From Branchiostoma floridae (Eukaryota > Chordata > Leptocardii > Amphioxiformes > Branchiostomatidae): 64,000 nt of DNA. Under the pieces are notes generated by a model. That model was not told the origin of the DNA, made no database searches, and was given only the letters and a program-made list of their open reading frames with translations. The stretch spans positions 3,424,666 through 3,488,665 of the forward strand of contig NC_049981.1 of the NCBI RefSeq assembly GCF_000003815.2. Reading direction: 5' to 3'. The translations under genes were made by a program, and so were the position numbers. This document shows positions 5,354 through 31,367 of this stretch, piece after piece; within the stretch, counting starts at the first letter, position 1, and each line of letters opens with the position of its first letter.

Positions 5354-5504
5354 CCACATCAAATACTGGCAACGAATAAGAAAATATCTTTATTGAATGT
5401 CTTGTTAACAAAATGTGACATCAAGATTAAACGTTACTGCAATGTTTTTGTTGTGCTTATCTTTATTGGTACATGTATGTCCCTGATGCTGAACAACATC
5501 CACA

Positions 5505-6590
5505 CACAGGTGAACACACCTGTCCCTGGTACTGAACACAAACAACACAGAGGTGAACACACCTGTCCCTGGTACTGAACACCATCTACACAGAGGTGAA
5601 TACACCTGTCCTTGGTGCTGAACACCATCCACACACAGGTAAACACACCTGTCCCTGGTGCTGAACACCATCCACACACAGGTAAACACACCTGTCCCTG
5701 GTGCTGAACACCATCCACACACAGGTAAACACACCTGTCCCTGGTGCTGAACACCATCTACACAGAGGTGAATACACCTGTCCTTGGTGCTGAACACCAT
5801 CCACACACAGGTAAACACACCTGTCCCTGGTGCTGAACACCATCCACACACAGGTAAACACACCTGTCCCTGGTGCTGAACACCATCCACACACAGGTAA
5901 ACACACCTGTCCTTGGTGCTGAACACCATCCACACACAGGTAAACACACCTGTCCCTGGTACTGAACACCATCTACACAGAGGTGAATACACCTGTCCTT
6001 GGTGCTGAACACCATCCACACACAGGTAAACACACCTGTCCCTGGTGCTGAACACCATCTACACAGAGGTGAATACACCTGTCCTTGGTGCTGAACACCA
6101 TCCACACACAGGTAAACACACCTGTCCCTGGTGCTGAACACCATCCACACACAGGTAAACACACCTGTCCCTGGTGCTGAACACCATCCACACACAGGTA
6201 AACACACCTGTCCTTGGTGCTGAACACCATCCACACACAGGTAAACACACCTGTCCTTGGTGCTGAACACCATCCACACACAGGTAAACACACCTGTCCC
6301 AAGTACTGCATATCATCCACATAATAGTAAACACACCTGTCTCTGGCACTTAACACCATCCACACACAGGTAAACACACCTGTTCCTGAACACCACCCAC
6401 ACACATACAGGTAAACACACCTATCCCTGGTGCTTAACACCATCCACACACAGGGAAACACCTGTTCCTGGTGCTCAACACAATCCACACAGGTAAACAT
6501 ACTTGTCCCTGGTGCTTAACAGCAACCACGCATACATTTACAGGTAAATATGCCTGTCCTTGGTGCTGAACACCATCCACACACAAATAT
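5505..6590. repeat. 43-bp minisatellite (about 25 copies)
   Basis: Tandem array with unit of the form GGTGCTGAACACCATCCACA...CACACCTGTCCCT, 43 bases long, well conserved from about 5590 to 6300 and degenerate at both ends. Two alternating unit variants (CATCCACACACAGGTAAAC and CATCTACACAGAGGTGAAT) suggest higher-order duplication. Because 43 is not a multiple of 3, all three minus-strand frames carry the same peptide motif. These overlapping frames are not genes. Confidence 0.95.
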
Positions 6591-7693
6591 ATATAGTTTC
6601 AATACTATCAATTACAACACGTGAGTTGGTAAAGGTATCTATGGTGTGCAGTTAGGCAACTCCTACCCATATTCGCTAAATTAATCTCGAAGTTCACTCA
6701 AACACCAAGATTGGGCTGCACTGTTATGTGATTTCGCTAGGTGGCGTCTAAGCACGGCAGAAGCTGTAAACATCATCTAGGACCGTGATGAATGCAAGCT
6801 GCCACGTTGATATGATTGAACATTCATTTTATTACATACTCAAAGATAAGGGGGTCTTGGGGATATCTAAATGTACAGGTAATATGCAATTTAAAAGCAA
6901 TTTTAGGATAGTGCTCAAAGTCCACTTCATCATGTGGAGAGCAAATATCGAAACGGATAATAAATTTTAGATAGCCTGCTTCGGGCAGACTTCAAGGGAG
7001 GATTTGCAACATGGGATAGGGTTATTTTAGACCCCGTTACAGTCTTCGGAACGGGGCTGTTATTTGGGGGGGGGGGGGGAAGGTGGCGTGGGGCAAGGAC
7101 TCGCTATCAGGGCAAACTCCCTTCCTCGGCAAACTCAATTTCCCGGTATAAGGGGACATAGCCGCACAGCCACCGTTGAAAATTGCGGACCAACGCCGTT
7201 CCGTCCCGTTCCGAAGACTGCAACGGAGTTTAAGGTTTTTTGCCGTGTAAGTGAGTGGTAAAACTCCCTTTCTTAGCAACAAGGGCCGAAGCAAATGTTC
7301 AACGTCGCGACTCACGCCCCCCCCCCGAAAAAAAATAACAAACACATATGATTTACCAAAGACAAACACATGTACTTTCAATCTACTTAAGTCATGTCCA
7401 GACTACATATCTTCGTATTTAGGCCAATACATATGTAATGCTCTAAAAAAACAGATAATGTATTGTACAGTAACAGACCTACTTGTTTAACTTGTATATC
7501 ACACTATGTCAATACGCCATTTATGTTCACATTCCTGTACTATACATGTATGTAGTTATAGACCTTAGACGAGTGTCATTGTAATAATTGACTTATTACT
7601 GTTGCCTTACAATTGCACCATGTACAAATGTTGTGCAATAAAGTTAATTTATTCATTCATTCATAACGTTACATAGTTACACACACAAATAAA
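6591..7693. other. Intergenic, with short homopolymers and a possible retroelement tail
   Basis: No gene recognised. There is a G-run at 7066-7079 and a C-run near 7316-7327 in opposite orientation. They flank similar text (CCGTTCCGAAGACTG near 7205 against CAGTCTTCGGAACGG near 7041), so an inverted-repeat element of roughly 300 bp is likely at about 7029-7330. The stretch 7600-7665 ends in AATAAAG then repeated ATTC, resembling the 3' tail of a non-LTR retroelement. Confidence 0.4.
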
Positions 7694-13171: not shown

Positions 13172-13271
13172 NNNNNNNNNNNNNNNNNNNNNNNNNNNNN
13201 NNNNNNNNNNNNNNNNNNNNNNNNNNNNNNNNNNNNNNNNNNNNNNNNNNNNNNNNNNNNNNNNNNNNNNN
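13172..13271. other. Assembly gap (100 N)
   Basis: Exactly 100 consecutive N, a conventional placeholder for a gap of unknown size. Exons upstream of the F5/8C domain may be lost here. The flanks share short similar text (ATGTTATGCGACAT before, ATGTTGTGCGATAT after), so a local repeat may have caused the gap. Confidence 0.99.
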
Positions 13272-13750
13272 ACGGCATTGTTTGCGTAATAAATGACATG
13301 ATGTTGTGCGATATTTAAAAGTTAATGTATATAAAACTATAACCTATATAGTGGTCCCATTCGACTTCATGTAAAATGTAAGCGTATGATTTGTCTTTGA
13401 AATGATGTGGAGGTTGGGGCGTTGTTACTTTAAGAGATGAAACCCTATATATTGTTTTTAAGATAAATGGTAATAAAGTCTTCTATTGGTGATTGATGAA
13501 AGAACATATTTAGCGCATGACTGATGTATAAAGTTTTATGCTGTTAGTGATTGAAAAAAATTCTTATAGCTAAGTGATTAAAGAACAGATCTCTTCCAGT
13601 AATGAAAGTTTAAGAATGTTGGCAGTCATGTGTGTGTGTATTGTATAATGTATATTGCAAGAATTTTCCTTACTTGGGGGAGGGGGGGGGGTAATTTTAG
13701 CCGGTAATTTTTTTCATTTTTGACATCAACATTCTTTCTCGTCTTCCCAG

Positions 13751-15878
13751 CCTGTGGTGACCCACTTGGAATGGAATCTGGTGCCATACCTGATGGCAGC
13801 ATCACTGCATCCTCAGACAATGGAGACTATTACGCCCCTTATCGCGCGCGGTTAAACGCAGGATGGGCCTGGATACCCGCGGACAGCTTAGCCGGGCAGT
13901 GGTTGCAGGTAGGCACACATCTTGATAAAACGAAAAATTCGTCTTCTGTACAATACGGCCGTATTGTAAATCTCCGTTATCTAAAGTACGTTTATTACGC
14001 AACTAGGAAATCAAAAGAATTCAAGGTCCGTACAACAGAACCTTGAAAATATTTACCTGTACAAAGTTTCGGTAACTCGGTTTCCTTGCGGTCCCAAATG
14101 TCAGCAAGGAAAATGTGTTTTAATTAGATTCCAATCCGTACTACAGTATTGATTGAAATATATTGTCTTTTGCCATTATTTAGTGTTTGTGGTAATTTTA
14201 GACCCCGAAAAATATTTTGGGCCCGGCGCCCGTGCGCCTGGTATTACAACCAAATGACCTGAAATTGGACATATGCCCGCAGGACCCAGTCAACACTTTT
14301 TTGCATACATCTCTTCAAAAATTATGCATTTGGGGATTTGGGGCCATTTTGATAATAAATGTATATTTTGTCGTTAAAACCTGAAAATTGGTACGAACGA
14401 GTGTAGGGCATGTGCCCACAATACTTAAGTTTCTCTCAATGCGTTCATTGCTTAAAAATTGCTCTTGCATTGGGGAATGTTTGGCCAATTTAAACAAAAA
14501 AATGTTACGTTTTGGCTCAAAACCAAATGACCGGAAATTTGGTATGATGGCGTGCACCGGATGTAGTGTGCATCACTTGAAATTGTTGAATTGGGGGATT
14601 TTTTTGTTGACATTTTTACCAAAAATATACATTTTGTGTTCCTGTGTCACGAAGAAGCCAAATGATCTGGAATTCGGTACAGGTGTAGCTTTAGCACTTG
14701 AAAGGTAAAATGGGTCACATAGACCAGTCCATTTTTTATTGTCGTATTGGGGGTGGGGTGTTGCTTTTCTATTTCTTATTTTTCTTTTATTTGCCTTTCA
14801 GGTGGATTTAGGGGAAATAAAGCGCGTCACGGGTACCATCATTCAGGGTCGGCCTTCTAGCTTATGGGTGACGTCATACAGACTCCAGTACAGTACAGAT
14901 CGGATCAGTTGGCTGACATATACTAGCAGCGACGGCTCAGACATGGTATTAAAATAATATAGATGTTCGTTTTAATTTTAAATGTCAAGATCTAACATAA
15001 CACCACGAAGTGATGTAAATAATTATGCCTTTTAGACATTAAATTAAGCAGAGTAGTGCGGCATTATCTATCACGTTAAATATCTAGGGCTAAAGTTATA
15101 TTTTGAGAAGACTAGTATCATAAAAAATCATCCATTTACAGGTTTTTCCAGGCAACGTAGACGCTAGCACCCCGGTCACGAATTTACTGGACAACCCTGT
15201 TGATGCCCGTTATGTGCGTTTCGTGGTCCAGTCCTGGAATAGTCAAGTCGCAATGAGGGTGGAGATTGTGGGCTGTAACACAAGTAAGTATCCACTTACA
15301 TATTCTTAACATTATAGACTGAAAGTGGTGACCTGTTTTTATCCATAATCAATGTTAATTTTGAACATTTAAAAATACACATTTCTTCACGTAAGGATTG
15401 GAATAGAACGACACGTAGCTGTATTGTCTTTTATGAAACATCATCAGGGACATTTGCTTATTCTACCCAAATCATTGTGATAATTCATCAAGCCACTTTA
15501 ATAAAGCCCATAGACATGTAGTTAGATACGCAGGTATATAAAAGACAAAAAAACTATTATCAATATAACTAGCCTTTTGACTGTAAAAATAATGTGTAAG
15601 GGTACTATAAATGCACTTGGCCAATACAGGAAAGGTTCGATCTAAGTTTTGTATACCGTCGATGTCATTGGTTCCATCTATTTAAACCCTCAGCTGCAGC
15701 CCCCCTCCCGGCCTGTCCACTTCTACTTGGGATGGAGTCTGGTGATATACCTGATGACAGCATCACTGCATCCTCCTTCAATCCTGGTGGTTCGGAGCCT
15801 TATTATGGGCGGCTAAACCTAGTTGCTGGTCGAACCGCCTGGCTGGCAGGGTACAGCGCAGTAGGACAGTGGTTGCAG
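13751..15878 (+). CDS. F5/8-type-C (discoidin) domain protein, partial
   Basis: Four exons, 13751..13908, 14802..14945, 15142..15283 and 15694..15878, all with consensus splice sites and compatible phases (entry needs one base from an upstream exon; later joins are phase 0, 0, 1). The first three make one full F5/8C domain: CGDPLGMESGAIPDGSITAS, then GQWLQ|VDLGEIKRVTG, SYRLQYSTD, FPGNVD, NLLDNPVDARYVRF and VEIVGCN. Exon 4 starts a second domain (LLLGMESGDIPDDSITASS ... VGQWLQ) that ends at a phase-0 donor. Its expected VDLG continuation was not found before the large inverted duplication at 16295, nor in the 3 kb after it. F5/8C domains bind lipids, glycans or proteins outside the cell, and tandem arrays are typical of secreted or membrane proteins. 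The start and end of the gene are not visible, so it may be truncated. Specific identity is unknown. Confidence 0.88.
13909..14801. other. Intron with diverged internal repeats
   Basis: Between F5/8C exons. It holds several loosely repeated segments of the form AACCAAATGACCTGAAATT-GG-A (about 14248, 14379, 14520 and 14659), suggesting a decayed tandem repeat of about 130-140 bp. Confidence 0.5.
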
Positions 15879-16294
15879 GTAGACATACACATTAATTAAA
15901 TAAAAATGGCGTTCTCTACATTACCTACTCACAAAAGTGACTATTTCCTGTCGATAAACGTCGATAACACAAGGACCTAGTGGAGCTAGTGGAACTCAAG
16001 TTCTTCCGTGACCGAGGTTTCGCAAGACAAAAAAGGGACGAAAGCTTTTCGGGGGCTGGGTTAACGTTTGAGTTTCCATTTCTCATTATCTGTTACGAAA
16101 TGACATTAAATACTAACATTGATAAAAAAAACAAAATGATATAAAGTGTTTTCGGTGGAACCAAGCCTTGCTTCCGAAAATTTCCACACGCGTTGTTCAA
16201 ATGTAAGCCGATTCTGTGACTTAGATTGACCATCATGGTGTTGTGTAAGCAAAGTTGCAATACCGAGCGCCGTGGATGATTAAAACACTGCAGT
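15879..16294. other. Start of intron after F5/8C exon 4
   Basis: Non-coding. No acceptor followed by a VDLG-like F5/8C continuation was seen. The stretch ends where the left arm of the inverted duplication begins. Confidence 0.5.
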
Positions 16295-16519
16295 TAACAG
16301 AATCCAAAATAATAAAGGAAAATCCACTTTATTCCTTTTTTTTCGACGTGATAATCAGAAAACGAAGTCTGAATTTCTTTGAAAATCAAGTCATTTTGGA
16401 TTGGAATGCAATATTTGAAGAGACTCAAGTCCCAGGAATATTGACTTGTGGGGGCGATTGCCCCGTACAAAGTCTGAATTGTCCAGTCATCTCGTCTTGA
16501 TTTCATCAGAGTGAAGAAG

Positions 16520-16870
16520 ACTTGGGGGGCGATCGCCCTGTCAGGACTTGGGGCGATCGCCCTGTCAGGGCTTGGGGGGCGATCGCCCTGTAGCTTTCAG
16601 GACTTGGTGGCAATCGCCCTGCCAGTACTTCGGGGCGATCGCCCTGTCAGTGCTTGGGGCGATCGCCCTGTGATCAGTACTTGGGGGGCGATTGCCCTGT
16701 CAGTGCTTGGGGGCGATCGCCCTGCCAGGGCTTGGGGGCTATCGCCCTGTCAGGATTTGGGGGCGATCGCCCTGTCAGGATTTGGGGGCGATCGCCCTGT
16801 CAGTCCTTGCAGTACCTGGGGGCGATCGCCCTGACAGGACAATCGCCCGTGGTGGGCCAGTATGGGGCGA
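16520..16870 (+). repeat. Tandem array of GGGCGATCGCCC (left arm)
   Basis: About 13 units of roughly 25-27 bases, each built on the self-complementary core GGGCGATCGCCC followed by CTGTCAG and a short TTGG spacer. The mirrored copy is at 29682-30032. The apparent GAIALSG and RSPC peptide repeats are by-products. Confidence 0.95.
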
Positions 16871-17218
16871 CTGCCCCTACTAGGGAAAATACAAGTACAT
16901 GACAAGTAGATTTTGCACAAATATTTTGTCAACCGGTTGAATGGATCACAAAAGAACTACTCAATTGAATAAGACGTTACAGCGTAGTCATCAATCATAC
17001 CTGTTTATGACACTTAGCTCCTTTAATTATAATGATCAATTTTGAACTACATCGATATCTTTCACAAGGTAGGCGTATTCCTTTCATACATACATGACAA
17101 GGTGTGTTGAAAAGCAGACAATACATATCTTACTCTTCTTGGCAATATCAAAGGATGGTAATTTTCGTAGACGCTATCAGTAAATACGTGGTGCATTTAT
17201 AAGCTGTGACTATTAAAA

Positions 17219-17383
17219 GTGGCTGGAAAGAGAAATAGGCCAAATAGACAGATATTATGCCGGAGGAGTTAGTCCGCTAAAGGTTTACAGTTTGCCGACC
17301 TGAGCAAAATGTACTCCTATAACAGACAAACCCCTCTTGCATGTTATCCGTCTATTTGGCCGATTTCTTAACTTTCCAGCCAC
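17219..17383. mobile_element. GTGGCTGGAAAG foldback MITE (left arm)
   Basis: A 165-bp hairpin element: GTGGCTGGAAAG ... CTTTCCAGCCAC, with long inner arms containing CCAAATAGACAGAT / ATCCGTCTATTTGG. The mirrored copy is at 29169-29333, so this insertion predates the inverted duplication or was homogenised with it. Confidence 0.88.
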
Positions 17384-18902
17384 CCCAGGAGTAAAGGATG
17401 ATAAAAGGAAACGTTAAAACAGTTTGTGTTCGTCTAACACATGAAACTAATGATTATACTCAAAACTGCGTTCTACATAAAAGTAATGGACCGTTTCTAT
17501 ATTTCGTTAGCTGAATCACACTTGTATTTTTAAGTCGGGGCGAGGGCCGCCAAAGGTGTCATTACCTGTTCCCTCGCCCCTTACACTTCTGTGTTGAATC
17601 TTAATAAACAAATAAACTTATAAGTTTGATGGTTCATTCGATCAGTGATTAATCCTGGTTGCAGCCAGTGCCTTGTGAATCAACTTGTTATGTTCAAATT
17701 CCATGCCCTTCGGTACGCTCTCAATTCTGGCTACATCTTGCAGCTGCTTCTTCCATCAGCGCGAGCGAAACTAGACCATACTTGCTCACTACGTATACCT
17801 CTCCTAGGCCTTTCCATCCGTGGTATTCTCTGAGCAGCAACCTGTAGCCAATGAATAAATGAATGGATGAAGAATGACACTGCATCCCACACAAAAAATA
17901 AATAGAAAGCCTAACGTAAGGCACAGACACGTGTATGCATACATTGCATATGATAGTATGACATAAATACATACATAATATACATACAACAGTGGACTAC
18001 TTATATGCCAGAAGGGCTCAAATTCACAGATTGACAGCTGAGGAAAGCAGTCACAAAAGCATATCCGACAAACGGAATTAAGATATAGAGCAGGCAGGAG
18101 ACATGTTCCTTAGAAACATTGGATCAAAACAGTCAAAAGAAACTGTCATTTCTCTTAATCCGGTCAGAAAGTAGAATAAGGATTTGATACATAGATGCAG
18201 GAGTAAGTGATTTCATTTTTTCTCTGATGTACAGACGGTAAATATTTGTTTAGCTACCCTATTTTCTTGACAATCTCTTGAGTAAACTGACATGTCTTAG
18301 ACAACTAAGTGTTACCCGTAAACTGCAGGTTCAGAAAGATTGGAATCTGTTTTTACGGATATTAATTTATTATTCAATAAATGAAGGGATCAACAAAAGT
18401 AATGGCTTGATTTTGTTTGAAGCAACGCACATTTCACGCTGTAACAATGTAATAAAGACAATTCAAAACCTTGCATTGCTAGGCAAAGCCATATGCATGA
18501 AAAAATATATTGTGCCTTTGCACACTGTCAAACTATTACTACTATATAATACTAGCAAAGGAACAGCACGATCGCAGGAAACATTGAAATAAAGAAACAA
18601 TGGATATGAATAGGTAAGAGGCTATGACAGTACATGGAATAGAGAATGGTCAAAGTCGCCTTCTATCTAGTCTATGCATAATTTTATTAACTGTGGTCTT
18701 GGTAAAGATCTTACCTCATTCCTCCCATTAGACAGCTTTCCAGACGACTTTCGCTGACTCTAAGGGATCAGAAGATGTCTCATAACGGACCTGAATAAGA
18801 TTGTGGTGAGAACATGGATACAGTAAGTCCATAAAATCCGTGGCGCTTCTAACAATGTGTTTTCATAACAAGTCGCCATTTCTGTTAACTCCTAAGGTCC
18901 CA

Positions 18903-19274
18903 TTACATCAGAAAAGAAAGAAGCGGTCTGAAACAGCCCTCCAATTGCTGATCAAACGACCTGCATGCAGAAAGTGCAAATGTTGACCGTTGACCACCGA
19001 GTGACCAATAGTAGGAAAGGAATAGTAATTGAACAGGACCTCTCAACATCAGCTCACCATAGCTCTCTTGGCACGTTAAGCTAAATAAGCCATTCTTTTT
19101 GAAAAAAAAAGTTAGGTTTGCCTTATTGGAATAATTTGTAGCAGATTGCGTAACATAGCTCAAATCCTTGCTCCTATAGTATGTAATGAAGGTAATGGCA
19201 ACAATCTCGTCAAATAGATAAAAGCTCAACACACAAATGAATAAAAAATATGTCATTGTTTTGGTTCTATCCAC
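18903..19274 (-). pseudogene. 123-codon frame of unknown nature (left arm)
   Basis: An ATG-initiated frame with hydrophobic N-terminus (YFLFICVLSFYLF). It is matched by 27277-27648 on the other arm with only two residue differences in 123. No family recognised and no splice or promoter evidence. Conservation between arms is expected from the duplication and is not proof of selection. Confidence 0.2.
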
Positions 19275-20102
19275 TACACCTTAATGTACCCATATTCCCA
19301 AATGATCGGAAAACGTTGAAAACACTATAAGGCACATTAGGCGACAAAAGAACTATTTTGAATCCAAAATTAAAATCCATTCGACCTAACACTGCGATAG
19401 AGCTGTGTTGCAATTAAAAATCAGTGACCGTAGGTAACATACTCTCCGACGTAATTATGATTTATGTCGGTTGTGTTGTTTTCTGGTGTGTGACATTATG
19501 TTTTATATGAAATATAGGTACGAACATTAATTATATAGACCGATTACAATACTCAGTCGACGGTCACAGAGTAAAAATGACAGCTTGTTCCGCCAACACC
19601 ACCGCTGGACTCCGAACTCCACATGACTCCACATGACGGACGCATTGGTCCCAGCGGGGGTGGTGCCACGCGGGTTGCTAAGTACGGGCGGGCACACGAC
19701 TTCCAAACACATGTATCTGGAATTGGACATTAAGGTTTCTTAGATAGCCTCCATAGGAGACTCTCTGGGTCGTTTTTTTCTCGTCTTTTTCACCTTTTAG
19801 GCTCAAAAAAGTGACTTTTGCTGGACGTTAGCTAGCTAACATTTCTTTGAACCAGGTCGCTTGTGTATAGCGACTCACAAATTGAAAACGGTCAGCAAAA
19901 GTATTTTATGAAACGAGAAGAAAAAGATAGCAGGCTAGATTTCGCGGGTATTCTCTTTGCAATTCACGAGAAATACATCGGTCTACTGCATACAAAACTC
20001 ACATAGAGTTATACCAACACCATGTGAAGGTCCGTTAGGCCCAGAACGGAATCGATCATGGCCAAGTAGGGGAACCGTACGCGTGGGAAAGCTTAACTTC
20101 TT

Positions 20103-20306
20103 TTATCCAAGCAGAGGTTAGGTTCCGGATCCTTTTTTTTTTACGTTTCTATGGCTTAGGCATTTTCCCGGGCTTTCCATTATGTACTGTTCCTTTCTTT
20201 ATGCCTCGCGGCCTAGGCCGGGAGACATCAGAAAGCCCGATGAAAATGACTAAACAAACGTCAAAAAGCAGCCGGAGTCTTATCTGTCTAACCTCTGCTT
20301 GGAGAG
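20103..20306. mobile_element. Foldback element H1, CCAAGCAGAGGTTAG ends (left arm)
   Basis: Ends TCCAAGCAGAGGTTAG and CTAACCTCTGCTTGGA. The interior is an imperfect hairpin centred near GGCCTAGGCC. The mirrored copy is at 25958-26157. Confidence 0.85.
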
Positions 20307-20350
20307 GAGACTTGTTTATACTAGGCGATAGCTAAATCTTTCAATTTCTT

Positions 20351-20512
20351 TAATCTCCAAGCAGATCCTACGGTGCCATAAGATAGTATCAAAGCTGGCC
20401 AAGGAGTATAGCCGGTCAAAGGGAGTCAAACGGGCACCGGAAACCGAATGGATGCAGATCCTACGGTGGGTTTGATACTATATTACGCCACCGTGGATCT
20501 GCTTGGAGATTA
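20351..20512. mobile_element. Foldback element H2 with 9-bp TSD (left arm)
   Basis: Ends TAATCTCCAAGCAGATC / GATCTGCTTGGAGATTA, flanked by the direct 9-base duplication CAATTTCTT (20342-20350 and 20513-20521). Inner arms TAGTATCAAA / TTTGATACTA. The 9-bp duplication points to Mutator-like insertion. The mirrored copy is at 25752-25913. Confidence 0.9.
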
Positions 20513-21099
20513 CAATTTCTTGGCAGGCGAGAAGATGACTCAGCCAGGCATCCTAGCCACGTGACCCGTGACTGGTACATACAGTACCAACGGGACGTCC
20601 CTCGAGCCCTGTGCTAAACCTGGTCGTATCGACACCAGACCAGGATTGAAAATTCAAGTAAATTGCCATGTGCTTGAATCGTGATTTATTTCAGGATCTT
20701 TCAGAACGACGTAGCTTAAACGAAAACTATATCGTTAATGAAGAGTCGCCTTAACCAACTATTGTGCTAGATCTATTACTAGATTTTATCTGTGGTACCA
20801 AAACACTTCCAGATGCCCGCGTATATAATATTTTATAGAGGTATCTGAAGTTAGATTACGTAATTTACAAGTCAAGATTCCACAAGCAAATGGAATCATA
20901 CCCCGCACTCTACAACTACAAAGTACAAGAAAACCCACAATGACCAACAGCGACAATCAACTGATGAGAGACCGTCTATAAAACAAGAAGCTCCTACATG
21001 CCTTGTAAGATCTTGTAGAGATCTACGGCTACTCAAATCGACAAGCCCCCCTCCCGCCTAACAATAACAGTATCGTCTCCCCAAAGAACAGGTCCCCAA

Positions 21100-21506
21100 G
21101 TGTTATACTTCGAGTGGTACACTTCGAGTGGTACACTGTATCATTTCAGAATGAAGTTCTACATACCAAAGAACATTGGGGAGCTATCCAGTCGGAAAGG
21201 CAGGTGTGTACCGCGGTCTGTTGTCATTTTCCGTAAACGAGGCGCCCGCTCTTCCACGTTGATCGATCATTTCACCATATTTGTTACAGCCACGTGAAAG
21301 TCTGTCCGTTCAAGGGCCATCCTTTGTCCGCGTTGCCAGGATGTAACTCACGAAGAGACTGCAGAATGTCACGAAATAAGTTTAACTCGAATCAACATAA
21401 CTGTTTTGACTGTGAGAAAGGTAGTGGACCCCACACAGGACAATCTTTATATCTGGACTGTTCCACTATCCCCCAGTTCGACACCCCGTCGATGACCCCG
21501 TTATGA
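21100..21506 (+). pseudogene. Cysteine-rich reading-frame fragment (left arm)
   Basis: Two adjoining frames, 21100-21297 and 21294-21506. The second has regularly spaced cysteines (C-x12-C-x5-C-x13-C-x2-C-x15-C) in a stretch containing LSALPGCNSRRDC and HNCFDCEKG. The mirrored copy spans about 24780-25174 with a few residue changes. No known domain could be assigned. It may be a captured or decayed exon of a secreted protein. Confidence 0.25.
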
Positions 21507-21530
21507 CCCTGGCCTGACTTACAAGACTTT

Positions 21531-21623
21531 ATTCTTCAAGCAGATGTTGGGTAGAAGTGGTGGTCGGGATTTCGCAGGCTGCGGCTTCTACTATACTCCG
21601 ACCCAATCCCCGCTTGGAGATTA
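21531..21623. mobile_element. Foldback element H3 (left arm)
   Basis: A 93-bp element with ends TATTCTTCAAGCAG and CGCTTGGAGATTA, related to H2 by its terminal sequence but with a different interior. The mirrored copy is at 24644-24735. Confidence 0.7.
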
Positions 21624-22550
21624 TTTGTGAAGCGTTTCCGACTAGTTTCTGTAGGTTTCTGTTTGCCCAGCATGTCTTTTTCCGAAGTACCGACGGATAT
21701 TAAAAACAGTTTTAACTCTACTCTACGCTTCACATATAAAGTGAATTGGAGAAGGTGCTTTAATAGTTAGAGGCATAAACAGATTGAAATGTCGGAGGAG
21801 GATATAGCTATAGAAACTCTTTTTTCTTCGCGAACGAAGACCATTCTCTAGGGGGTTATTTCGAAACGTTACCATCTGAACTGTACCTATTATTCGTGGT
21901 GGGTTTAACCCGTAGCGGTTAGAACTAAAAAAAAAAAAAAACTTAAGTCCCTGAAATGTCTAGCGACTGTTTATTTCTTTCACTTCCGTCACTTATTGGG
22001 TTTGTATCGGTCGTAGAAAGAATCCTATTATTAGTATTAATCGGAGGTAAGACTGTTACCCATTGTGACCTTCTTCTCTCACATACCCCAATTTCCGTCA
22101 GCCGGTCTTATCAACGCGGTGTTTTTTGGCTCGCGTAACATATTTGACTATTTGATCTTTTAAAAGATAGAAAGAAAGGCAGTCCTGACGACAACATTTT
22201 AACGTTTCTACCATAATTTGCATATGGAATCATCGCTATTCTTTTAAACGGTAGAAACTCAACCACTGGACATCGCTTTATATTATCAATGAGGTTTATC
22301 ATCGTCCGGCTTCGGACTACGAAATTCCAATCTGTTTCGGGTTTTCCTGAAATCCATCAGTGGCAATCCCGGGTATGTTCTCGGCTCTTCACGTACTGGC
22401 CTGACCAGCGCACCGGCGCCGTTATCTATGTTAATGATCTATTTATCCAAACAAGCTTCGGGGTCAACGGGGACTGAGGCCAGGCTTGGAAATTTTCGTG
22501 TGGGGCGTTATTTTCGAAACAAAAGGTTGTATGAAGATTGATAAGACTGA

Positions 22551-22703
22551 TAGCCTCTACCAGGCTCCGTCGATCTGTGGTCTTATTGTAGAAATTGGAC
22601 AAATAGAGTCAATAGTACGCTAGGGGTGTCGGCCGGCCAGTACAAACATTATCCTCACTCCCTTGGCGTCTTGTGTCGAGCTCCACGGAGCCTGTAGAGG
22701 TTA
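22551..22703. mobile_element. Relative of the TAGCCTCTACCAGG foldback MITE
   Basis: Starts TAGCCTCTACCAGGCTCCGT, shares AATTGGACAAATAGAGTC and TACGCTAGGGG with the element at 4172-4393, and ends GGAGCCTGTAGAGGTTA. The right half is shortened and diverged, and no clear target duplication remains. Confidence 0.75.
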
Positions 22704-23027
22704 GAATGTTGTGATTTTTAATCTCATGTCCGTTTTATGTCCACACTCCAGATGCCATGGACATAAAATAAACGATAAAGATGTAACAGGGTGCCCCTGT
22801 ACTGTAATGTAATTTATCTGAATTCCGTGTACCGTTGAGATATATCAAAACTTTAGTGTAGAAAAGTATTGGTCACACTTTCCTGATCTCTTCTGAGAAG
22901 GAGGGGTCAGGAGTATGCGTCCGGATGACAGCCGTGAGTAATGACCCTTGAAGAGAACTAATGACTTTTACCCAAGGGGGTATGCTGAATCCCTCTACAA
23001 TTTGGGGCTGTCCTGTAGATCTAATAC

Positions 23028-23123
23028 TCTCCAAGCAGAGGTCGAAACGCGCAGATATTGTAGTAGTCGAAAAAATTACACCGGCGCCTTACAAGAGCAC
23101 CGGTGTAATTTTTTCGATTAGAG
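23028..23123. mobile_element. Foldback element H4 with target duplication
   Basis: Starts TCTCCAAGCAGAGGTCG. Inner arms AAAAAATTACACCGG / CCGGTGTAATTTTTTC form a hairpin. It is flanked by the direct repeat TAGATCTAATAC (23016-23027 and 23124-23135). The right terminal CTTGGAGA is missing, so one end is truncated. Confidence 0.75.
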
Positions 23124-23285
23124 TAGATCTAATACCTTAGAAAATGAGGAAATGAGTCAGGATTACAAGATAGTGAGACCGTGTTTAATGTACCGTGTTC
23201 TGAGAAATATATGCGTAGGCGATTAGACCATATGTAGAAAAGGATTAGAGATTTAGGAAACATGTGTGTGGAAAACTAGAGAGAG

Positions 23286-23427
23286 CACTCTCCAAGCAGA
23301 GGTTGAGTCGCGTAGATATAGTTGTAGTCGGAAAAATTACACCGGCGCTTCTCTGACGTAAGATTAGCGTCGTTGTAATTTTTCCGACTACTACTATATC
23401 TACGCGACTCGACCTCTGCTTGGAGAG
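23286..23427. mobile_element. Foldback element H5 (near-perfect 53-bp arms)
   Basis: CTCTCCAAGCAGAGG ... CCTCTGCTTGGAGAG with arms of about 53 bases almost perfectly complementary, around a short loop near ACCGGCGCTTCTCTGACG. It shares inner text (GTAGTCGGAAAAATTACACC) with H4 but not with H1-H3. Confidence 0.9.
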
Positions 23428-24163
23428 TATAGAGTATAGTGGGTGGAAGATTTAGAAGCTTAGCCTGCACAGCCCATGAAAACAGTCTGGCTTCCATGCA
23501 GTATTAGCCACATCGAAAAAAAAGCAGCCAGTGAATGAAGGAAATTTGATATACCCCTGGGAAAATAATAGTTCCTCTGTTGGGACAGCATGCTACATTC
23601 CGGACTGTAGAAAGACTGGCCAAAAAATTCCTTCCTTACTATAAAAGCTCTCTAAGTCGGCTTCGGCTTTTTTTTTACATTTCAATGTGTTGTCCACCAA
23701 AGGGAAAGCCCGGGGCCGAAAACAAGCCTGAGTCGAACCTCTGTGTGGGGGGTAATGTGGTAGGCATAAAGAAAACAGACCCGAAACCTACATGTTGAAG
23801 AGTATGGCTAATGGGCATAGAGAAAATATGACAAAGTAGAGGGCCCGAGAAAACCGGCATGAGTCAAACATGGAGACTATGTTACGCAAGCGAAAAACCA
23901 TCGCGTTGATGAGACCGGCTGACGGAAATTGAGGTATGTGAGAGAAGAAGGTCACAATGGGTAACAGTCTTACCTCTGATTAATACTAATAATAGGATTC
24001 TTTCTACGACCGACACAAACCCAATAAGTGACGGAAGTGAAAGAAATACAGCAGTCGCTAGACATTTCAGGGACTTAAGTTTTTTTTTTTTTTTAGTTCT
24101 AACCGCTACGGGTTAAACCCACCACGAATAATAGGTACAGTTCAGATGGTAACTTTTCGAAAT

Positions 24164-24398
24164 GTATAAAGTGTCGGCAAATAAATTTCCACGTACAGGC
24201 TTTGAGCATTTGATGTCAGCTCATTATGACAATAAATGTAGTTTCTATAGAGCTGCTCTTGGGGAGAAAGGCTGCAGACACACCGCCGTGATCCAGGCCC
24301 CCAACGAAGCATTCCCCTGCAACCGTCGTGAACGGGTGTGTCTGTCCCGCATACATAGGACTGACTAGCCATCAGCGAGCATGTGGCCGACGTGGACC
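24164..24398. other. Right-arm-specific 235-bp segment
   Basis: Absent between the matching flanks TCGAAAT and AACCCCCTAG of the left arm. No terminal repeats or target duplication were seen, so it may be an insertion here or a deletion from the left arm. No gene recognised. Confidence 0.7.
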
Positions 24399-24643
24399 AA
24401 CCCCCTAGAGAATGGTCTTCGTTCGCGAAGTCCAGCTAAGAAAAAAAGAGCTTCTATAGCTATATCCTCCTCCGACATTTCAATCTGTTTATGCCACTAA
24501 CTATTAAAGCACCTTCTCCAATTCACTTTATATGTGAAGCGTAGAGTAGAGTTAAAACTGTTTTTAATATCCGTCGGTACTTCGGAAAAAGACATGCTGG
24601 GCAAACAGAAACCTACAGAAACTAGTCGGAAACGCTTCACAAA

Positions 24644-24735
24644 TAATCTCCAAGCGGAGATTGGGTCGGAGTATAGTAGAAGCCGCGGCCTGCGAAATCC
24701 CGACCACCACTTCTACCCAACATCTGCTTGAAGAA
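24644..24735. mobile_element. Foldback element H3 (right arm)
   Basis: Mirrored copy of 21531-21623: TAATCTCCAAGCGG ... CTGCTTGAAGAATA. Confidence 0.7.
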
Positions 24736-25751
24736 TAAAAACTTGTAAGTCAGGCCGGGGTCATAACGGGGTCATCGACGGGGTGTCGAACTGCCATGGG
24801 GGATAGTGGAACAGTCCAGATATATTAAGCTTGTCCTGTGTGGGGTCCACTACCTTTCTCACAGTCAAAACAGTTATGTTGATTCGAGTTAAACTTATTT
24901 CGTGACATTCTGCAGTCTCTTCGTGAGTTACATCCTGGCAACGCGGACAAAGGATGGCGCTTGAACGGACAGACTTTCACGTGGCTGTAACAAATATGGT
25001 GAAATGATCGATCAACGTGGAAGAGCGGGCGCCTCGTTTACGGAAAATGACAACAGACCGCGGTACACGCCTGCCTTTCCGACTGGATAGCTCCCCAATG
25101 TTCTTTGGTATGTAGAACTTCATTCTGAAATGATACAGTGTACCACTCGAAGTGTACCACTTGAAGTATAACACTTGGGGACCTGTTCTTTGGGGAGACG
25201 ATACTGTTATTGTTAGGCGGGAGGGGGGCTTGTCGATTTGAGTAGCCGTAGATCTCTACAAGATCTTACAAGGCATGTAGGAGCTTCTTGTTTTATAGAC
25301 GGTCTCTCATCAGTTGATTGTCGCTGTTGGTCTTTGTGGGTTTTCTTGTACTTTGTAGTTGTAGAGTGCGGGGTATGATTCCACTTGCTTGTGGAATCTT
25401 GACTTGTAAATTATGTAATCTAACTTCAGATACCTCTATAAAATATTATATACGCGGGCATCTGGAAGTGTTTTGGTACCACAGATAAAATCTAGTAATA
25501 GATCTAGCACAATAGTTGGTTAGGGCGACTCTTCATTAACGATATAGTTTTCGTTTAAGCTACGTCGTTCTGAAATAAATCACGATTCAAGCACATGGCA
25601 ATTTACTTGAATTTTCAATCCTGGTCTGGTGTCGATACGACCAGGTTTAGCACAGGGCTCGAGGGACGTCCCGTTGGTACTGTATGTACCAGTCACGGGT
25701 CACGTGGCTAGGATGCCTGGCTGAGTCATCTTCTCGCCTGCCAAGAAATTG

Positions 25752-25913
25752 TAATCTCCAAGCAGATCCACGGTGGCGTAATATAGTATCAAACCCACCG
25801 TAGGATCTGCATCCATTCGGTTTCCGGTGCCCGTTTGACTCCCTTTGACCGGCTATACTCCTTGGCCAGCTTTGATACTATCTTATGGCACCGTAGGATC
25901 TACTTGGAGATTA
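25752..25913. mobile_element. Foldback element H2 (right arm)
   Basis: Mirrored copy of 20351-20512. The flanking 9-base duplication AAGAAATTG is retained on both sides. Confidence 0.88.
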
Positions 25914-25957
25914 AAGAAATTGAAAGACTTAGCTATCGCCTAGTATAAACAAGTCTC

Positions 25958-26157
25958 CTCTCCAAGCAGAGGTTAGACAGATAAGACTCCGGCTGCTTTT
26001 TGACGTTTTTTTAGTCATTTTCATCGGGCTTTCTGATGTCTCCCGGCCTAGGCCGCGAGGCATAAAGAAAGGAAACGGTATATAATAGAAAGCCCGGGAA
26101 AATGCCTAAGCCATAGAAACGTAAAAAAAACATCCGGAACCTAACCTCTGCTTGGAT
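25958..26157. mobile_element. Foldback element H1 (right arm)
   Basis: Mirrored copy of 20103-20306, with the central GGCCTAGGCC conserved. Confidence 0.85.
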
Positions 26158-26408
26158 AAAAGAAGTTAAGCTTTCCCACGCGTACGGTTCCCCAACTTGG
26201 CCATGTTCGATTTCATGTCGGAGCCTAACGGACCTTCACATGGTGTTGGTATAACTCTATGTGAGTTTTGTATGCAGTAGACCGATGTATTTCTCGTGAA
26301 ATGCAGAGGGAATACCCGCGAAATCTAGCCTGCTATCTTTTTCTTCTCGTTTCATAAAATACTTTTGCTGACCGTTTTCAATTTGTGAGTCGCTATACAC
26401 AAGCGACC

Positions 26409-26692
26409 AGTTCGTACAGTCTTCGTCGGGAAGCCCGATACAGGGCATCTAGAAGTAAAACGAAGAGACATGAACTGTCATTTGCTCCCCGTTCTGTAAG
26501 ATTACTGTACGAAAGTGCTTGTTGATCGGTAAAGAATGTTGATTCTGTCATGTCTATTTTTTTAATCCGATTGCTGTCTAATTTTAAATGTTGTAAATGC
26601 ATTAATGTTTTAAAGTTGATTCTGTGACTGATGACGCATTTCATGTGTATATACATGCCAAGTCATCCAGGAATAAAGCTGAATCTGAATCT
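26409..26692 (+). mobile_element. 3' end of a LINE, right arm only
   Basis: Present only in the right arm. The plus strand reads SSYSLRREARYRAS then KRHELSFAPRSVRLLYESAC and a stop. This is typical of the C-terminal end of a LINE ORF2, followed by a short AT-rich 3'UTR ending AATAAAGCTGAATCTGAATC, a short tandem TGAATC tail of CR1/L2 style. Strongly 5'-truncated. It inserted after the arms separated, or was lost from the left arm. Confidence 0.75.
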
Positions 26693-27276
26693 GGTTTACA
26701 AAAAAAAAAGGTTAGCTAGCTAACGTCCAGCAAAAGTCACTTTTTTGAGCCCAAATGGTGAAAAAGACGAGAAAAAAACGACCCAGAGAGTCTCCTATGG
26801 AGGCTATCTAAGAAACCTTAATGTCCAATTCCAGATACATGTGTTTGGAAGTCGTGTGCCCGCCCGTACTTAGCAACCCGCGTGGCACCACCCCCGCTGG
26901 GACCAATGCGTCCGTCATGTGGAGTCATGTGGAGTTCGGAGTCCAGCGGTGGTGTTGGCGGAACAAGCTGTCATTTTTACTCTGTGACCGTCGACTGAGT
27001 ATTGTAGTCGGTCTATGTAATTAGTGTTCGAACCTATTTTTCATATAAAACATAATGTCACACACCAGAAAACAACACAACCGACATAAATCATAATTAC
27101 GTCGGAGAGTATGTTACCTACGGTCACTGATTTTTAATTGCAACACAGCTCTATCGCAGTGTTAGGTCGAATGGATTTTAATTTTGGATTCAAAATAGTT
27201 CTTTTGTCGCCTAATGTGCCTTATAGTGTTTTCAACGTTTTCCGATCATTTGGGAATATGGGTACATTAAGGTGTA

Positions 27277-27648
27277 GTGGATAGAACCAAAACAATGACA
27301 TATTTTTTATTCATTTGTGTGTTGAGCTTTTATCTTTTTGACGAGATTGTTGCCATTACCTTCATTACATACTATAGGAGCAAGGATTTGAGCTATTTTA
27401 CGCAATCTGCTACAAATTATTCCAATAAGGCAAACCTAACTTTTTTTTTCAAAAAGAATGGCTTATTCAGCTTAACGTGCAAAGAGAGCTATGGTGAGCT
27501 GATGTTGAGAGGTCCTGTTCAATTACTATTCCTTTCCTACTATTGGTCACTCGGTGGTCAACGGTCAACATTTGCACTTTCTGCATGCAGGTCGTTTGAT
27601 CAGCAATTGGAGGGCTGTTTCAGACCGCTTCTTTCTTTTCTGATGTAA
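27277..27648 (+). pseudogene. 123-codon frame of unknown nature (right arm)
   Basis: Counterpart of 18903-19274 with two residue differences (V to F and Q to K). No family recognised. Confidence 0.2.
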
Positions 27649-29168
27649 TGGGACCTTATGAGTTAACAGAAATGGCGACTTGTTATGAAAACACATTGTT
27701 AGAAGCGCCACGGATTTTATGGACTTACTGTATCCATGTTCTCACCACAATCTTATTCAGGTCCGTTATGAGACATCTTCTGATCCCTTAGAGTCAGCGA
27801 AAGTCGTCTGAAAAGCTGTCTAATGGGAGGAATGAGGTAAGATCTTTACCAAGACCACAGTTAATAAAATTATGCATAGACTAGATAGAAGGCGACTTTG
27901 ACCATTCTCTATTCCATGTACTGTCATAGCCTCATATCCATTGTTTCTTTATTTCAGTGTTTCCTGCGATCGTGCCGTTCCTTTGCTAGTATTATATAGT
28001 AGTAATAGTTTGACAGTGTGCAAAGGCACAATATATTTTTCATGCATATGGCTCTGCCTAGCAATGCAAGGTTTTGAATTGTCTTTATTACATTGTTACA
28101 GCGTGAAATGTGCGTTGCTTCAAACAAAATCAAGTCATTACTTTTGTTGATCCCTTCATTAATAATAAATTAATATCCGTAAAGACAGATTCCAGTCTTT
28201 CTGAACCTGCAGTTTATGGGTAACACTTAGTTGTCTAAGACATGTCAGTTTACTCAAGAGATTGTCAAGAAAATAGGGTAGCTAAACAAATATTTACCGT
28301 CTGTACATCAGAGAAAAAATGAAATCACTTACTCCTGCATCTATGTATCAAATCCCTATTCTACTTTCTGATCGGATTAAGAGAAATGACAGTTTCTTTT
28401 GACTGTTTTGATCAAATGTTTCTAAGGAATATGTCTCCTGCCTGCTCCATATCTTAATTCCGTTTGTCGGATATGCTTTTGTGACTGCTTTCCTCAGCTG
28501 TCAATCTGTGAATTTGAGCCCTTCTGGCATATAAGTAGTCCACTGTTGTATGTATATTATGTATGTATTTATGTCATACTATATACAATATGCAATGTAT
28601 GCATACACGTGTCTGTGCCTGCTTCACACCTTACCTTAGGCTTTCTATTTATTTTATGTGTGGGATGCAGTGTCATTCTTCATCCATTCATTTATTCATT
28701 GGCTACAGGTTGCTGCTCGGAGAATACCACGGATGGAAAGGACTAGGAGAGGTTTACGTAGTGAGCAAGTATGGTCTAGTTTCGCTCGCGCTGATGGAAG
28801 AAGCAGCTGCAAGATGTAGCCAGAATTGAGAGCGTACCGAAGGGCATGGAATTTGAACATAACAAGTAGATTCACAAGACACTGGCTGCAACCAGGATTA
28901 ACCACTGATCGACTGAACCATATCCAACTTACAAGTTTATTTGTTTATTAAGATTCAACACAGAAGTGTAAGGGGCGAGGGAACAGGTAATGACACCTTT
29001 GCCGGCCCTCGTTCCGACTTAAAAATACAAGTGTGATTCAGCTAACGAAATATAGAAACGGTCCATTACTTTTATGTAGAACGCAGTTTTGAGTGTAATT
29101 ATTAGTTTCATGTGTTAGACGAACACAAACTGTTTTAACGTTTCCTTTTATCATCCTTTACTCCTGGG

Positions 29169-29333
29169 GTGGCTGGAAAGTTAAGAAATCGGCCAAATAG
29201 ACAGATAACATGCAAGAGGGGTTTGTCCGTTATAGGAGTACATTTTGCTCAGGTCGGCAAACTGTAAACCTTTAGCGGACTAACTCCTCCGGCATAATAT
29301 CTGTCTATTTGGCCTATTTCTCTTTCCAGCCAC
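29169..29333. mobile_element. GTGGCTGGAAAG foldback MITE (right arm)
   Basis: Mirrored copy of 17219-17383, with identical termini. Confidence 0.88.
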
Positions 29334-29681
29334 TTTTAATAGTCACAGCTTATAAATGCACCACGTATTTACTGATAGCGTCTACGAAAATTATCATCCT
29401 TTGATATTGCCAAGAAGAGTAAGATATGTATTGTCTGCTTTTCAACACACCTTGTCATGTATGTATGAAAGGAATACGCCTACCTTGTGAAAGATATCGA
29501 TGTAGTTCAAAATTGATCATCATAATTCAAGGAGCTAAGTATCATAAACAGGTATGATTGATGACTACGCTGTAACGTCTTATTCAATTGGGTAGTTATT
29601 TTGTGATCCATTCAACCGGTTGACAAAATATTTGTGCAAAATCTACTTGTCATGTACTTGTATTTTCCCTAGTAGGGGCAG

Positions 29682-30032
29682 TCGCCCCATATTGGCCCAC
29701 CACGGGCGGTTGTCCTGTCAGGGCGATCGCCCCCAGGTACTGCAAGGACTGACAGGGCGATCACCCCCAAATCCTGACAGGGCGATCGCCCCCAAATCCT
29801 GACAGGGCGATCGTCCCCAAGCCCTGGCAGGGCGATCGCCCCCAAGCACTGACAGGGCAATCGCCCCCCAAGTACTGATCACAGAGCGATCGCCCCAAGC
29901 ACTGACAGGGCGATCGCCCCGAAGTACTGGCAGGGCGATCGCCACCAAGTCCTGAAGGCTACAGGGCGATCGCCCCCCAAGCCCTGACAGGGCGATCGCC
30001 CCCAAGTCCTGACAGGGCGATCGCCCCCAAGT
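29682..30032 (-). repeat. Tandem array of GGGCGATCGCCC (right arm)
   Basis: Mirrored copy of 16520-16870, with a few core substitutions such as GGGCGATCACCC near 29757 and GGGCGATCGTCC near 29805. Confidence 0.95.
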
Positions 30033-30257
30033 CTTCTTCACTCTGATGAAATCAAGACGAGATGACTGGACAATTCAGACTTTGTACGGGGCAATCGCCC
30101 CCACAAGTAAATATTCCTGGGACTTGAGTCTCTTCAAATATTGCATTCCAATCCAAAATGACTTGATTTTCAAAGAAATTCAGACTTCGTTTTCTGATTA
30201 TCACGTCGAAAAAAAAGGAATAAAATGGATTTTCCTTTATTATTTTGGATTCTGTTA

Positions 30258-31367
30258 TAAGAATTAGAGAGCTTGAAAGATCATCTGTCACAGCAGCAGT
30301 GGATTGTTCATACCTTGACAAAGACTGGAGCTGTGTAGTCGAAAATTTGGGTGAGTCCAATTTTTGTGTCGGAAATTATAGTTTATCTCGTTCCAGAAGA
30401 ACTATAATAGAGGATGCTATTTTTAGTAATATTCCAATATGTACAAACTCTGCATGGTTTATGTGATAGTATTACACGCTTTTGAACCCCCTTTCTTCTG
30501 ACAATCGAATGTTCTACAGCTTGAAAGCCTTGACATCTTCAAGCAGTGGCAGCATTATCGATTCAATGCACGCTTTGTTGCTTTTTGATCGCATTAAGAG
30601 CTTATCGCACCCCTTGGAGTGTTCCTCCATAGAATCAATAAAACTATCCATTCTCATAACGTATTAACGTAATTTGCCAGACATTCCGAATAGACTACTG
30701 ATTTTGAGGGAATATTTATTCACGTCAGGGTACTTATTGAAAACACACCAGGCAGCATGAAAAACAGGCAAACCTCACATAACACTAAGGGAAACACGAA
30801 TAAAAAAGAAACCGAGAAGGGTGGAAAAAATGGCTGTCAGATCTTCTGTGGTGCTCTAACGGTCAAATACTTGACAAATGAATAGATGAGATGTTAATAG
30901 GGAACTATGCTAACATGACTTTGGTACACATTTGACAGACTTTTGCATACGATCCTTATAAGTAAGTGGAACAACCAGTTTTTCTAGTAAGCTGTGCTTG
31001 TATTTGTATTTGTACTTATGTACATTTAATCGTTCTGCCAGCTCATTCTATTTTATGTATCATTTATCTTGACTTTTTGTATTTCCTTTTTATATGTGGA
31101 AATAAAAACAATAATAATAAAAAAATTCTAGTGACGCTGATGAAGGAGGGTGATGGATGTCACTCGAAACGTCCGGAGTTAATTTCCGTTTTTTATCCAG
31201 TTGTAGAGATTGATTTGTATTTGAATAAGATGAGATGTTAACTAGGTGTAAATGCATCCACAAGTTACTATGTATTCTTGACTATAATATACTGAAATAA
31301 AAAAAAAGTCGCATTCCTATCATCGAACAATCATAATACATTGCAGTCCTTTTTTCTGTTCAGTTTT
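30258..31367. other. Non-coding flank of inverted duplication
   Basis: No F5/8C continuation was seen. The plus frame through 30245-30466 is open but not recognised. Around 31135-31180 the text GATGAAGGAGGGTGATGGAT followed by CACTCGAAACGTC resembles a motif common in Penelope-like or other retroelement remnants. This is tentative. Confidence 0.4.

What the first reader, a model, noticed from the sequence alone, without database searches (positions are those of the whole stretch)
16295..30257. A ~14 kb near-perfect palindrome with nested hairpin elements
Arms of about 5.8 and 6.4 kb are reverse complements, with a 1.7-kb unpaired spacer. Every foldback element in one arm has a mirrored partner in the other, so the duplication came after those insertions or the arms are kept alike by conversion. 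No target-site duplication flanks the object, which argues against a simple transposon insertion. Arm divergence is low but real: two residues differ in a 123-codon frame, and there are two large length differences. Two explanations compete: a biological inverted duplication, or an assembly join of two haplotypes in a heterozygous genome.
Basis: partly seen in the sequence, partly recalled or inferred. Interest (0 to 1): 0.8.

Follow-up and report, generated by a model that had tools for sequence, protein, structure and literature searches.

The report
Giant palindromic DNA transposon in lancelet
The 14-kb palindrome is not an assembly mistake but one copy of a family of jumping DNA whose two ends are mirror images several kilobases long, and some of its largest relatives carry a candidate mobility gene of a kind with no assigned function.

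Summary
The palindrome is real: 16296-30256, arms 5.85 and 6.38 kb, spacer 1.7 kb. It is one copy of a DNA-transposon family. The same genome (513 Mb, probably Branchiostoma floridae) holds 71 matches to its 23-bp end (reversed-pattern control 0). I pair 52 ends into 26 elements of 1.1-59 kb; 18 of 26 have an exact 4-bp target-site duplication (cross-locus control 3 of 650). This rejects a haplotype join and a one-off duplication. The window copy lacks a duplication, and an F5/8C gene is cut off beside it: perhaps a rearrangement breakpoint (lead only). Arms are kept alike within a copy in the window's family (5 of 5 testable copies) but in only 3 of 10 copies of a sister family. A 1,066-bp member with 37-bp inverted ends and its own duplication shows that long arms are not needed to jump. 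No gene was recognised in the window copy. Of the five largest relatives, two carry DUF7869 exons, a third does in part, and a fourth carries a CACTA-type transposase; DUF7869 is the better candidate enzyme, by association only. New variant of a known kind; possibly an undescribed superfamily.

The parts
16292..16295 (.). left flanking tetranucleotide AGTT (does not match the right flank)
16296..30256 (.). whole element, 13,961 bp, palindromic DNA transposon (family A)
16296..22142 (+). left arm (5,847 bp)
16296..16318 (+). left terminus AACAGAATCCAAAATAATAAAGG, the family end
16519..16803 (+). subterminal array, about 11 x 25 bp, core GGGCGATCGCCC
19848..19855 (.). place where the left arm lacks 288 bp of the right arm
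21857..21858 (.). place where the left arm lacks 235 bp of the right arm
22143..23877 (.). unpaired spacer, 1,735 bp, no long frame; same direction as in copies C12 and C2, reversed in C13
23878..30256 (-). right arm (6,379 bp)
29749..30033 (-). mirror subterminal array
30234..30256 (-). right terminus CCTTTATTATTTTGGATTCTGTT
30257..30260 (.). right flanking tetranucleotide ATAA

Best explanation
A non-autonomous DNA transposon with giant terminal inverted repeats, moved in trans. SHOWN: a fixed 23-bp terminus in convergent pairs across the genome; exact 4-bp target-site duplications at 18 of 26 pairs; shared subterminal arrays; arms more alike within a copy than between copies in this family; a short member with 37-bp inverted ends that also has a duplication; DUF7869 exons inside two of the largest pairs and part of the same gene in a third. 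INFERRED: an enzyme encoded by larger relatives, most likely the DUF7869 protein, binds the ends and the GGGCGATCGCCC arrays, cuts, and inserts at a target cut with a 4-bp stagger. The long arms arose when one end plus former interior DNA was copied in inverted orientation. They are made alike again from time to time by copying one arm from the other (gene conversion, or gap repair across the hairpin) and are a by-product, not needed for movement.
For:: inverted pairs with long arms at other loci; 71 ends, reversed-pattern control 0; exact 4-bp duplication in 18 of 26 pairs, cross-locus 3 of 650, exact match over 5, 6 or 7 bases in none; in each of five copies with both arms usable the arms are sisters (support 90-100); 70 sites have both arms of every copy alike while copies differ, against 10 where an L/R difference is shared by two or more copies; 1,066-bp member C12s with duplication ATAT. 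DUF7869 exons in C8c and C16; related exons in C19 up to a gap; both arms of C5, C7 and C11 match the N-terminal part of the C19 616-aa frame, so their arms probably are former interior coding DNA; arms of families A and C collinear at 67-82%, so long arms are old.
Against: This copy has no target-site duplication. In the sister family only 3 of 10 copies have sister arms over the outer 1.15 kb; in the other seven the arms are 6-9% apart, so homogenisation is not general. No movement was observed. The link between DUF7869 and movement is by association: 64 of the 70 DUF7869 matches in the genome lie outside the pairs, most pairs were not read inside or have gaps, and C5 carries a different transposase.
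Confidence: 0.85

Rival explanations
1. Assembly artefact: two haplotypes joined head to head in a heterozygous genome.
For: Amphioxus genomes are very heterozygous (3.2-4.2%, abstract of PMC12500494 as shown in the listing); arm divergence 1.7-1.8% is of the same order; this copy lacks a duplication.
Against: Both arms end at the same base with different flanks; no gap inside or at the edges (the only N run is 13172-13271); the same structure with duplications elsewhere; each flank has one full-length place in the assembly.
Confidence: 0.02
2. A one-off inverted segmental duplication at this locus, not transposition.
For: No duplication at this copy.
Against: The same end sequence in 26 convergent pairs, 18 with duplications.
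Confidence: 0.02
3. A CACTA/EnSpm element with enlarged inverted ends, moved by the Transposase_21 enzyme found in relative C5.
For: C5 (same termini, 27.4 kb) has a 760-aa frame with Transposase_21 (7.6e-24) and DUF4218 (1.4e-7). In the stretches searched no exact inverted repeat of 13 bp or more of its own encloses it, apart from an AT run and two matches of 15 and 17 bp. C11 and C7 lack an 11.6-kb segment that holds it, as deletion derivatives would. Subterminal repeats and a 4-bp duplication fit.
Against: Of the 63 listed matches to this protein only the C5 one lies in a pair. In C5 the 11.6-kb segment is bordered by the 9-bp repeat TGGTCGAAC, single in C11, so a later insertion is not excluded. 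Termini are not CACTA or CA..TG. C8c and C16, and C19 in part, carry DUF7869 instead.
Confidence: 0.25
4. The window copy is a chimera left by ectopic recombination between two copies, at a rearrangement breakpoint.
For: No duplication. The F5/8C gene on the left stops after the first exon of its second domain and no convincing continuation is found in the window, while the closest paralogue has the next exon starting 258 bp further on. Galileo precedent (PMC2775673, passages).
Against: Its two arms are sisters and share 16 private sites, unlike the chimeric Galileo copies. Among the eight pairs without an exact duplication the only direct match is WIN-left/C8b-right AGTT, not reciprocal, which chance can give. 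The gene may be an old fragment.
Confidence: 0.25

Closest known systems
Foldback transposons, in particular Galileo (P superfamily, Drosophila)
   Same: Long inverted arms; in two Galileo copies with intact duplications the arms are over 99% alike within a copy and about 7% apart between copies; subfamilies share nearly identical terminal 40 bp (PMC2775673, passages).
   Different: Galileo makes 7-bp duplications, and the long-armed copies tabulated in that passage have arms of about 0.6 kb; here 4 bp and up to 6.4 kb. I found no P-type transposase, but did not search for one.
CACTA/EnSpm (CMCT clade)
   Same: Subterminal repeats, 2-5 bp duplications (PMC12730594 and PMC8978399, passages), and one relative with Transposase_21.
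   Different: Ends are AACAG, not CACTA or CA..TG; arms of kilobases.
KolobokP composite-like transposons
   Same: Long terminal repeats in an animal DNA transposon (PMC9587614, abstract).
   Different: KolobokP repeats are direct, around 450 or 660 bp; these are inverted and longer.
Polinton/Maverick
   Same: Large size and inverted ends (recalled).
   Different: 6-bp duplication (recalled) against 4 bp; no capsid or polymerase match among the frames I sent to Pfam, which were few.

Membership tests
[quoted passage not shown]
[quoted passage not shown]
   family: 18 of 26 pairs; this copy: none
Foldback class (structural) | inverted arms make up most of the element | tested here: met
   12.2 of 14.0 kb in the window copy
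Galileo / P superfamily | 7-bp duplication | tested here: not met
   4 bp; exact 5-7 bp matches in 0 of 26
CACTA/EnSpm | CACTA or CA..TG termini | tested here: not met
   AACAGAATCC..GGATTCTGTT
CACTA/EnSpm | 2-5 bp duplication and subterminal repeats | tested here: met
CACTA/EnSpm | Transposase_21 encoded by the family | tested here: inconclusive
   found in 1 of 26 pairs; gaps in several
Transposon group with DUF7869 protein (proposed) | DUF7869 gene inside elements with these ends | tested here: met
   2 of 26 pairs by Pfam model (C8c, C16), C19 in part by tblastn; 64 of 70 matches outside pairs
Transposon group with DUF7869 protein (proposed) | DUF7869 protein cuts and joins these ends | not testable with these tools
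   needs a transposition assay
Polinton/Maverick | family B DNA polymerase, integrase, capsid genes | not tested
   large relatives read only in part

The most novel reading that the evidence does not exclude
An undescribed superfamily of animal DNA transposons, 1-59 kb, with AACAGAATCC ends, GGGCGATCGCCC arrays, 4-bp duplications and a DUF7869 protein as transposase, in which inverted duplication of an end repeatedly builds giant palindromes that in some lineages are kept alike by conversion.
Probability: 0.33. Interest if true: 0.72.

Novelty: new variant of a known kind. Interest (0 to 1): 0.55.

Why it matters
It turns a suspected assembly error into a transposon family whose arms are about ten times as long as those of the long-armed Galileo copies tabulated in PMC2775673. 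It gives a natural series for asking how long inverted repeats arise, survive and are made alike: a 37-bp-ended member, long-armed members with divergent arms, and long-armed members with near-identical arms. It also offers a testable role for a protein domain (DUF7869) with no assigned function. Such palindromes may be rearrangement hot spots (inference) in a chordate used as a reference for vertebrate origins.

Tried and rejected
Assembly join and local duplication: rejected on sibling loci. A TA duplication hidden in the self-complementary ends: considered from the window alone (note) and dropped once siblings fixed the terminus at AACAG with 4-bp duplications. Insertion in the right arm as the cause of the length differences: less likely than loss from the left arm. 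Orphan duplications exchanged between copies: only WIN-left/C8b-right AGTT, not reciprocal. General homogenisation of arms: contradicted by family B. DUF7869 exon in viral contigs: 119 pattern matches, none confirmed. Rfam: only mir-2060 matches, in another array. No tRNA by the bacterial-code scan. Structure prediction was not run: the candidate gene is split by introns and gaps. I could not consult Repbase. Papers: the library has none with 'DUF7869' or 'LanceleTn'. Searches listed no paper whose title or start of abstract describes this family, but searches showed only 12 of 45, 5 of 3,382 and 8 of 96 papers, so this is no proof that it is unpublished. Rows dropped before counts: C9_L (misaligned) and C17 (one arm) in the tree and site counts; two misaligned stretches seen were masked.
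Full report
1. The object. The window holds an inverted repeat with arms 16296-22142 and 23878-30256 and a spacer of 1,735 bp. Identity including gaps is 97.3, 96.8 and 96.2% in three blocks. Arms of this length cannot be chance. The only N run of the window is 13172-13271.

2. The genome. The window lies on contig C3 of a genome of 513,431,437 bases in 431 contigs. Rfam finds 13 mir-2060 matches, all in one tandem array; the only paper in the library with that name is on Branchiostoma belcheri (listing). That the genome is B. floridae is my inference; its size and number of large contigs fit what I recall.

3. Siblings. A search with 16400-17400 gave 63 matches (40 of 88 candidates scored), among them convergent pairs about 12-16 kb apart on C13, C6, C2, C12 and C9. 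Fetched and self-compared, these are inverted repeats like the window copy, C9 with shorter matching blocks and 2,556 N. Their arms begin with AACAGAATCCAAAATAATAAAGG, except that C6 has a short deletion near its left end. A genome-wide pattern search for AACAGAATCCAAAATAATAARGG with up to two mismatches found 71 places (33 forward, 38 reverse), and none for the reversed pattern. By my pairing, 50 form 25 convergent pairs, one is the right end of C6 (whose left end makes the 26th pair), and 20 are unpaired. Lengths run from 1,066 bp (C12s) to 59,011 bp (C16); the sum is 490 kb, 0.095% of the genome.

4. Duplications. For the 26 pairs the four bases on either side are identical in 18; pairing left and right flanks of different loci gives 3 identical of 650; no pair matches over 5, 6 or 7 bases. 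C11 and C166 differ at one base. C4b has a changed left end that leaves TATA possible (by eye). C8b, C2, C5, C8a (C8x in the scripts) and the window copy have none. The family therefore inserts with a 4-bp duplication, and the window copy is one of a minority without it.

5. Families. Window, C13, C6, C2, C12 and C9 are family A (C17 has one arm only). C5, C7 and C11 share with it about the outer 500 bp at 81-85% and form family B. C8a and C9b form family C, whose arms are collinear with family A's at 67-82%. I did not assign the other pairs fully. What A and B share is the terminus and the array with core GGGCGATCGCCC, which suggests that these are the parts the enzyme reads. C12s has 37 bp of exact inverted end and the array on one side, yet carries duplication ATAT: long arms are dispensable.

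6. Arms. In family A, with C9_L and C17 left out, the tree pairs both arms of each of five copies (supports: WIN 100, C13 100, C12 94, C6 91, C2 90). Over 5,051 sites in four copies (WIN, C13, C2, C12), 70 have both arms alike in every copy while copies differ, 147 are private to one arm, 10 show an arm difference shared by two or more copies, 6 are mixed and 2 have more than two letters. So arms have been made alike within copies after the copies diverged. Within-copy divergence is 0.5-1.8%, the window copy 1.67%. This is below the 3.2-4.2% heterozygosity quoted for amphioxus (abstract of PMC12500494 in the listing), so the insertion or its last homogenisation may be recent and the insertion may be polymorphic (inference). 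Against a general rule, in ten family-B-like copies only C14a, C16 and C7 have sister arms over the outer 1.15 kb, arrays included. In the other seven the arms are 6-9% apart; five of them (C11, C14b, C166, C4a, C4b) carry one arm from each of two arm groups, as if two old arms travel together.

7. Genes. The window copy has no frame of 180 aa or more, and the two frames tested match no Pfam model above its cut-off. Relative C5 has a 760-aa Transposase_21/DUF4218 frame and a DUF4616 frame, but 62 of 63 listed matches to that transposase lie outside the pairs. The 11.6-kb segment that holds it is absent from C11 and C7, and is bordered in C5 by a 9-bp repeat, so deletion from C11 and C7 and insertion into C5 both remain possible. 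Relative C19 (29.2 kb, duplication TCAG) has a 616-aa frame. Of 21 matches to its C-terminal 217 residues, 4 lie in pairs: C19 itself, two in C8c (96-99%) and one in C16 (41%); C6, C4, C10 and others lie outside. Exons further on in C8c match DUF7869 (2.4e-14 and 3.9e-8). A genome search with that model gives 70 matches (117 candidates, all scored): 3 in C8c (model positions 3-187 in three pieces) and 3 in C16 (2-189), the other 64 outside pairs. Six of 70 in 0.095% of the genome is far above an even spread, though DUF7869 is plainly also common elsewhere. C19 shows related exons by tblastn up to a 5.3-kb gap. Both arms of C5, C7 and C11 match the N-terminal part of the C19 frame, so family B arms probably are former interior coding DNA. 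A second frame is shared between C19 and C5, C11 and C7 at 42-57%. I take DUF7869 as the older gene of the group and the likeliest mobilising enzyme; this is association, not proof.

8. Surroundings. The left flank carries exons of an F5/8C-domain gene: 14802-14954 and 15142-15276 lie in frames above the Pfam cut-off, 15726-15887 in a frame below it, and 13762-13911 is a tblastn match. No convincing match to the second domain's next exons is found in the rest of the window, while the closest paralogue has the next exon starting 258 bp further on. With the missing duplication this could mark a rearrangement, as shown for Galileo (PMC2775673, passages), but the copy's arms are sisters, unlike chimeric Galileo copies, and the gene could be an old fragment.

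9. Verdict. The bold reading, a new superfamily driven by DUF7869, stays open.

Noticed in passing
window 13762-15887: F5/8C (discoidin) gene exons, second domain cut off before the element; related sequence is clustered on the same contig between about 3.33 and 3.91 Mb and on C7 and C8.
   Followed up: partly
window 5465-6592, - strand: Thirteen Rfam mir-2060 matches fall in one 43-bp tandem array of 25.7 copies, so this microRNA family may be a repeat artefact.
   Followed up: no
window 30287-30402 and 16025-16285: A very common dispersed repeat starts 30 bp from the element's right end; another old repeat ends near 16285 on the left.
   Followed up: partly
G000 C3:3314022 and C3:3318271: Two family-type ends pointing away from each other 4.2 kb apart, about 120 kb from the window element.
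   Followed up: no
G000 C16:3519922-3578932 and C166:188599-236028: Pairs of ends 59 and 47 kb apart (duplication exact in C16, 3 of 4 bases in C166); interiors mostly unread.
   Followed up: partly
C19 (L048-L050 joined) 13660-14145 and C5 (L029-L031 joined) 6720-7265: A frame of 162-182 aa shared by C19 and C5/C11/C7 with no Pfam match, perhaps an accessory gene of the group.
   Followed up: partly
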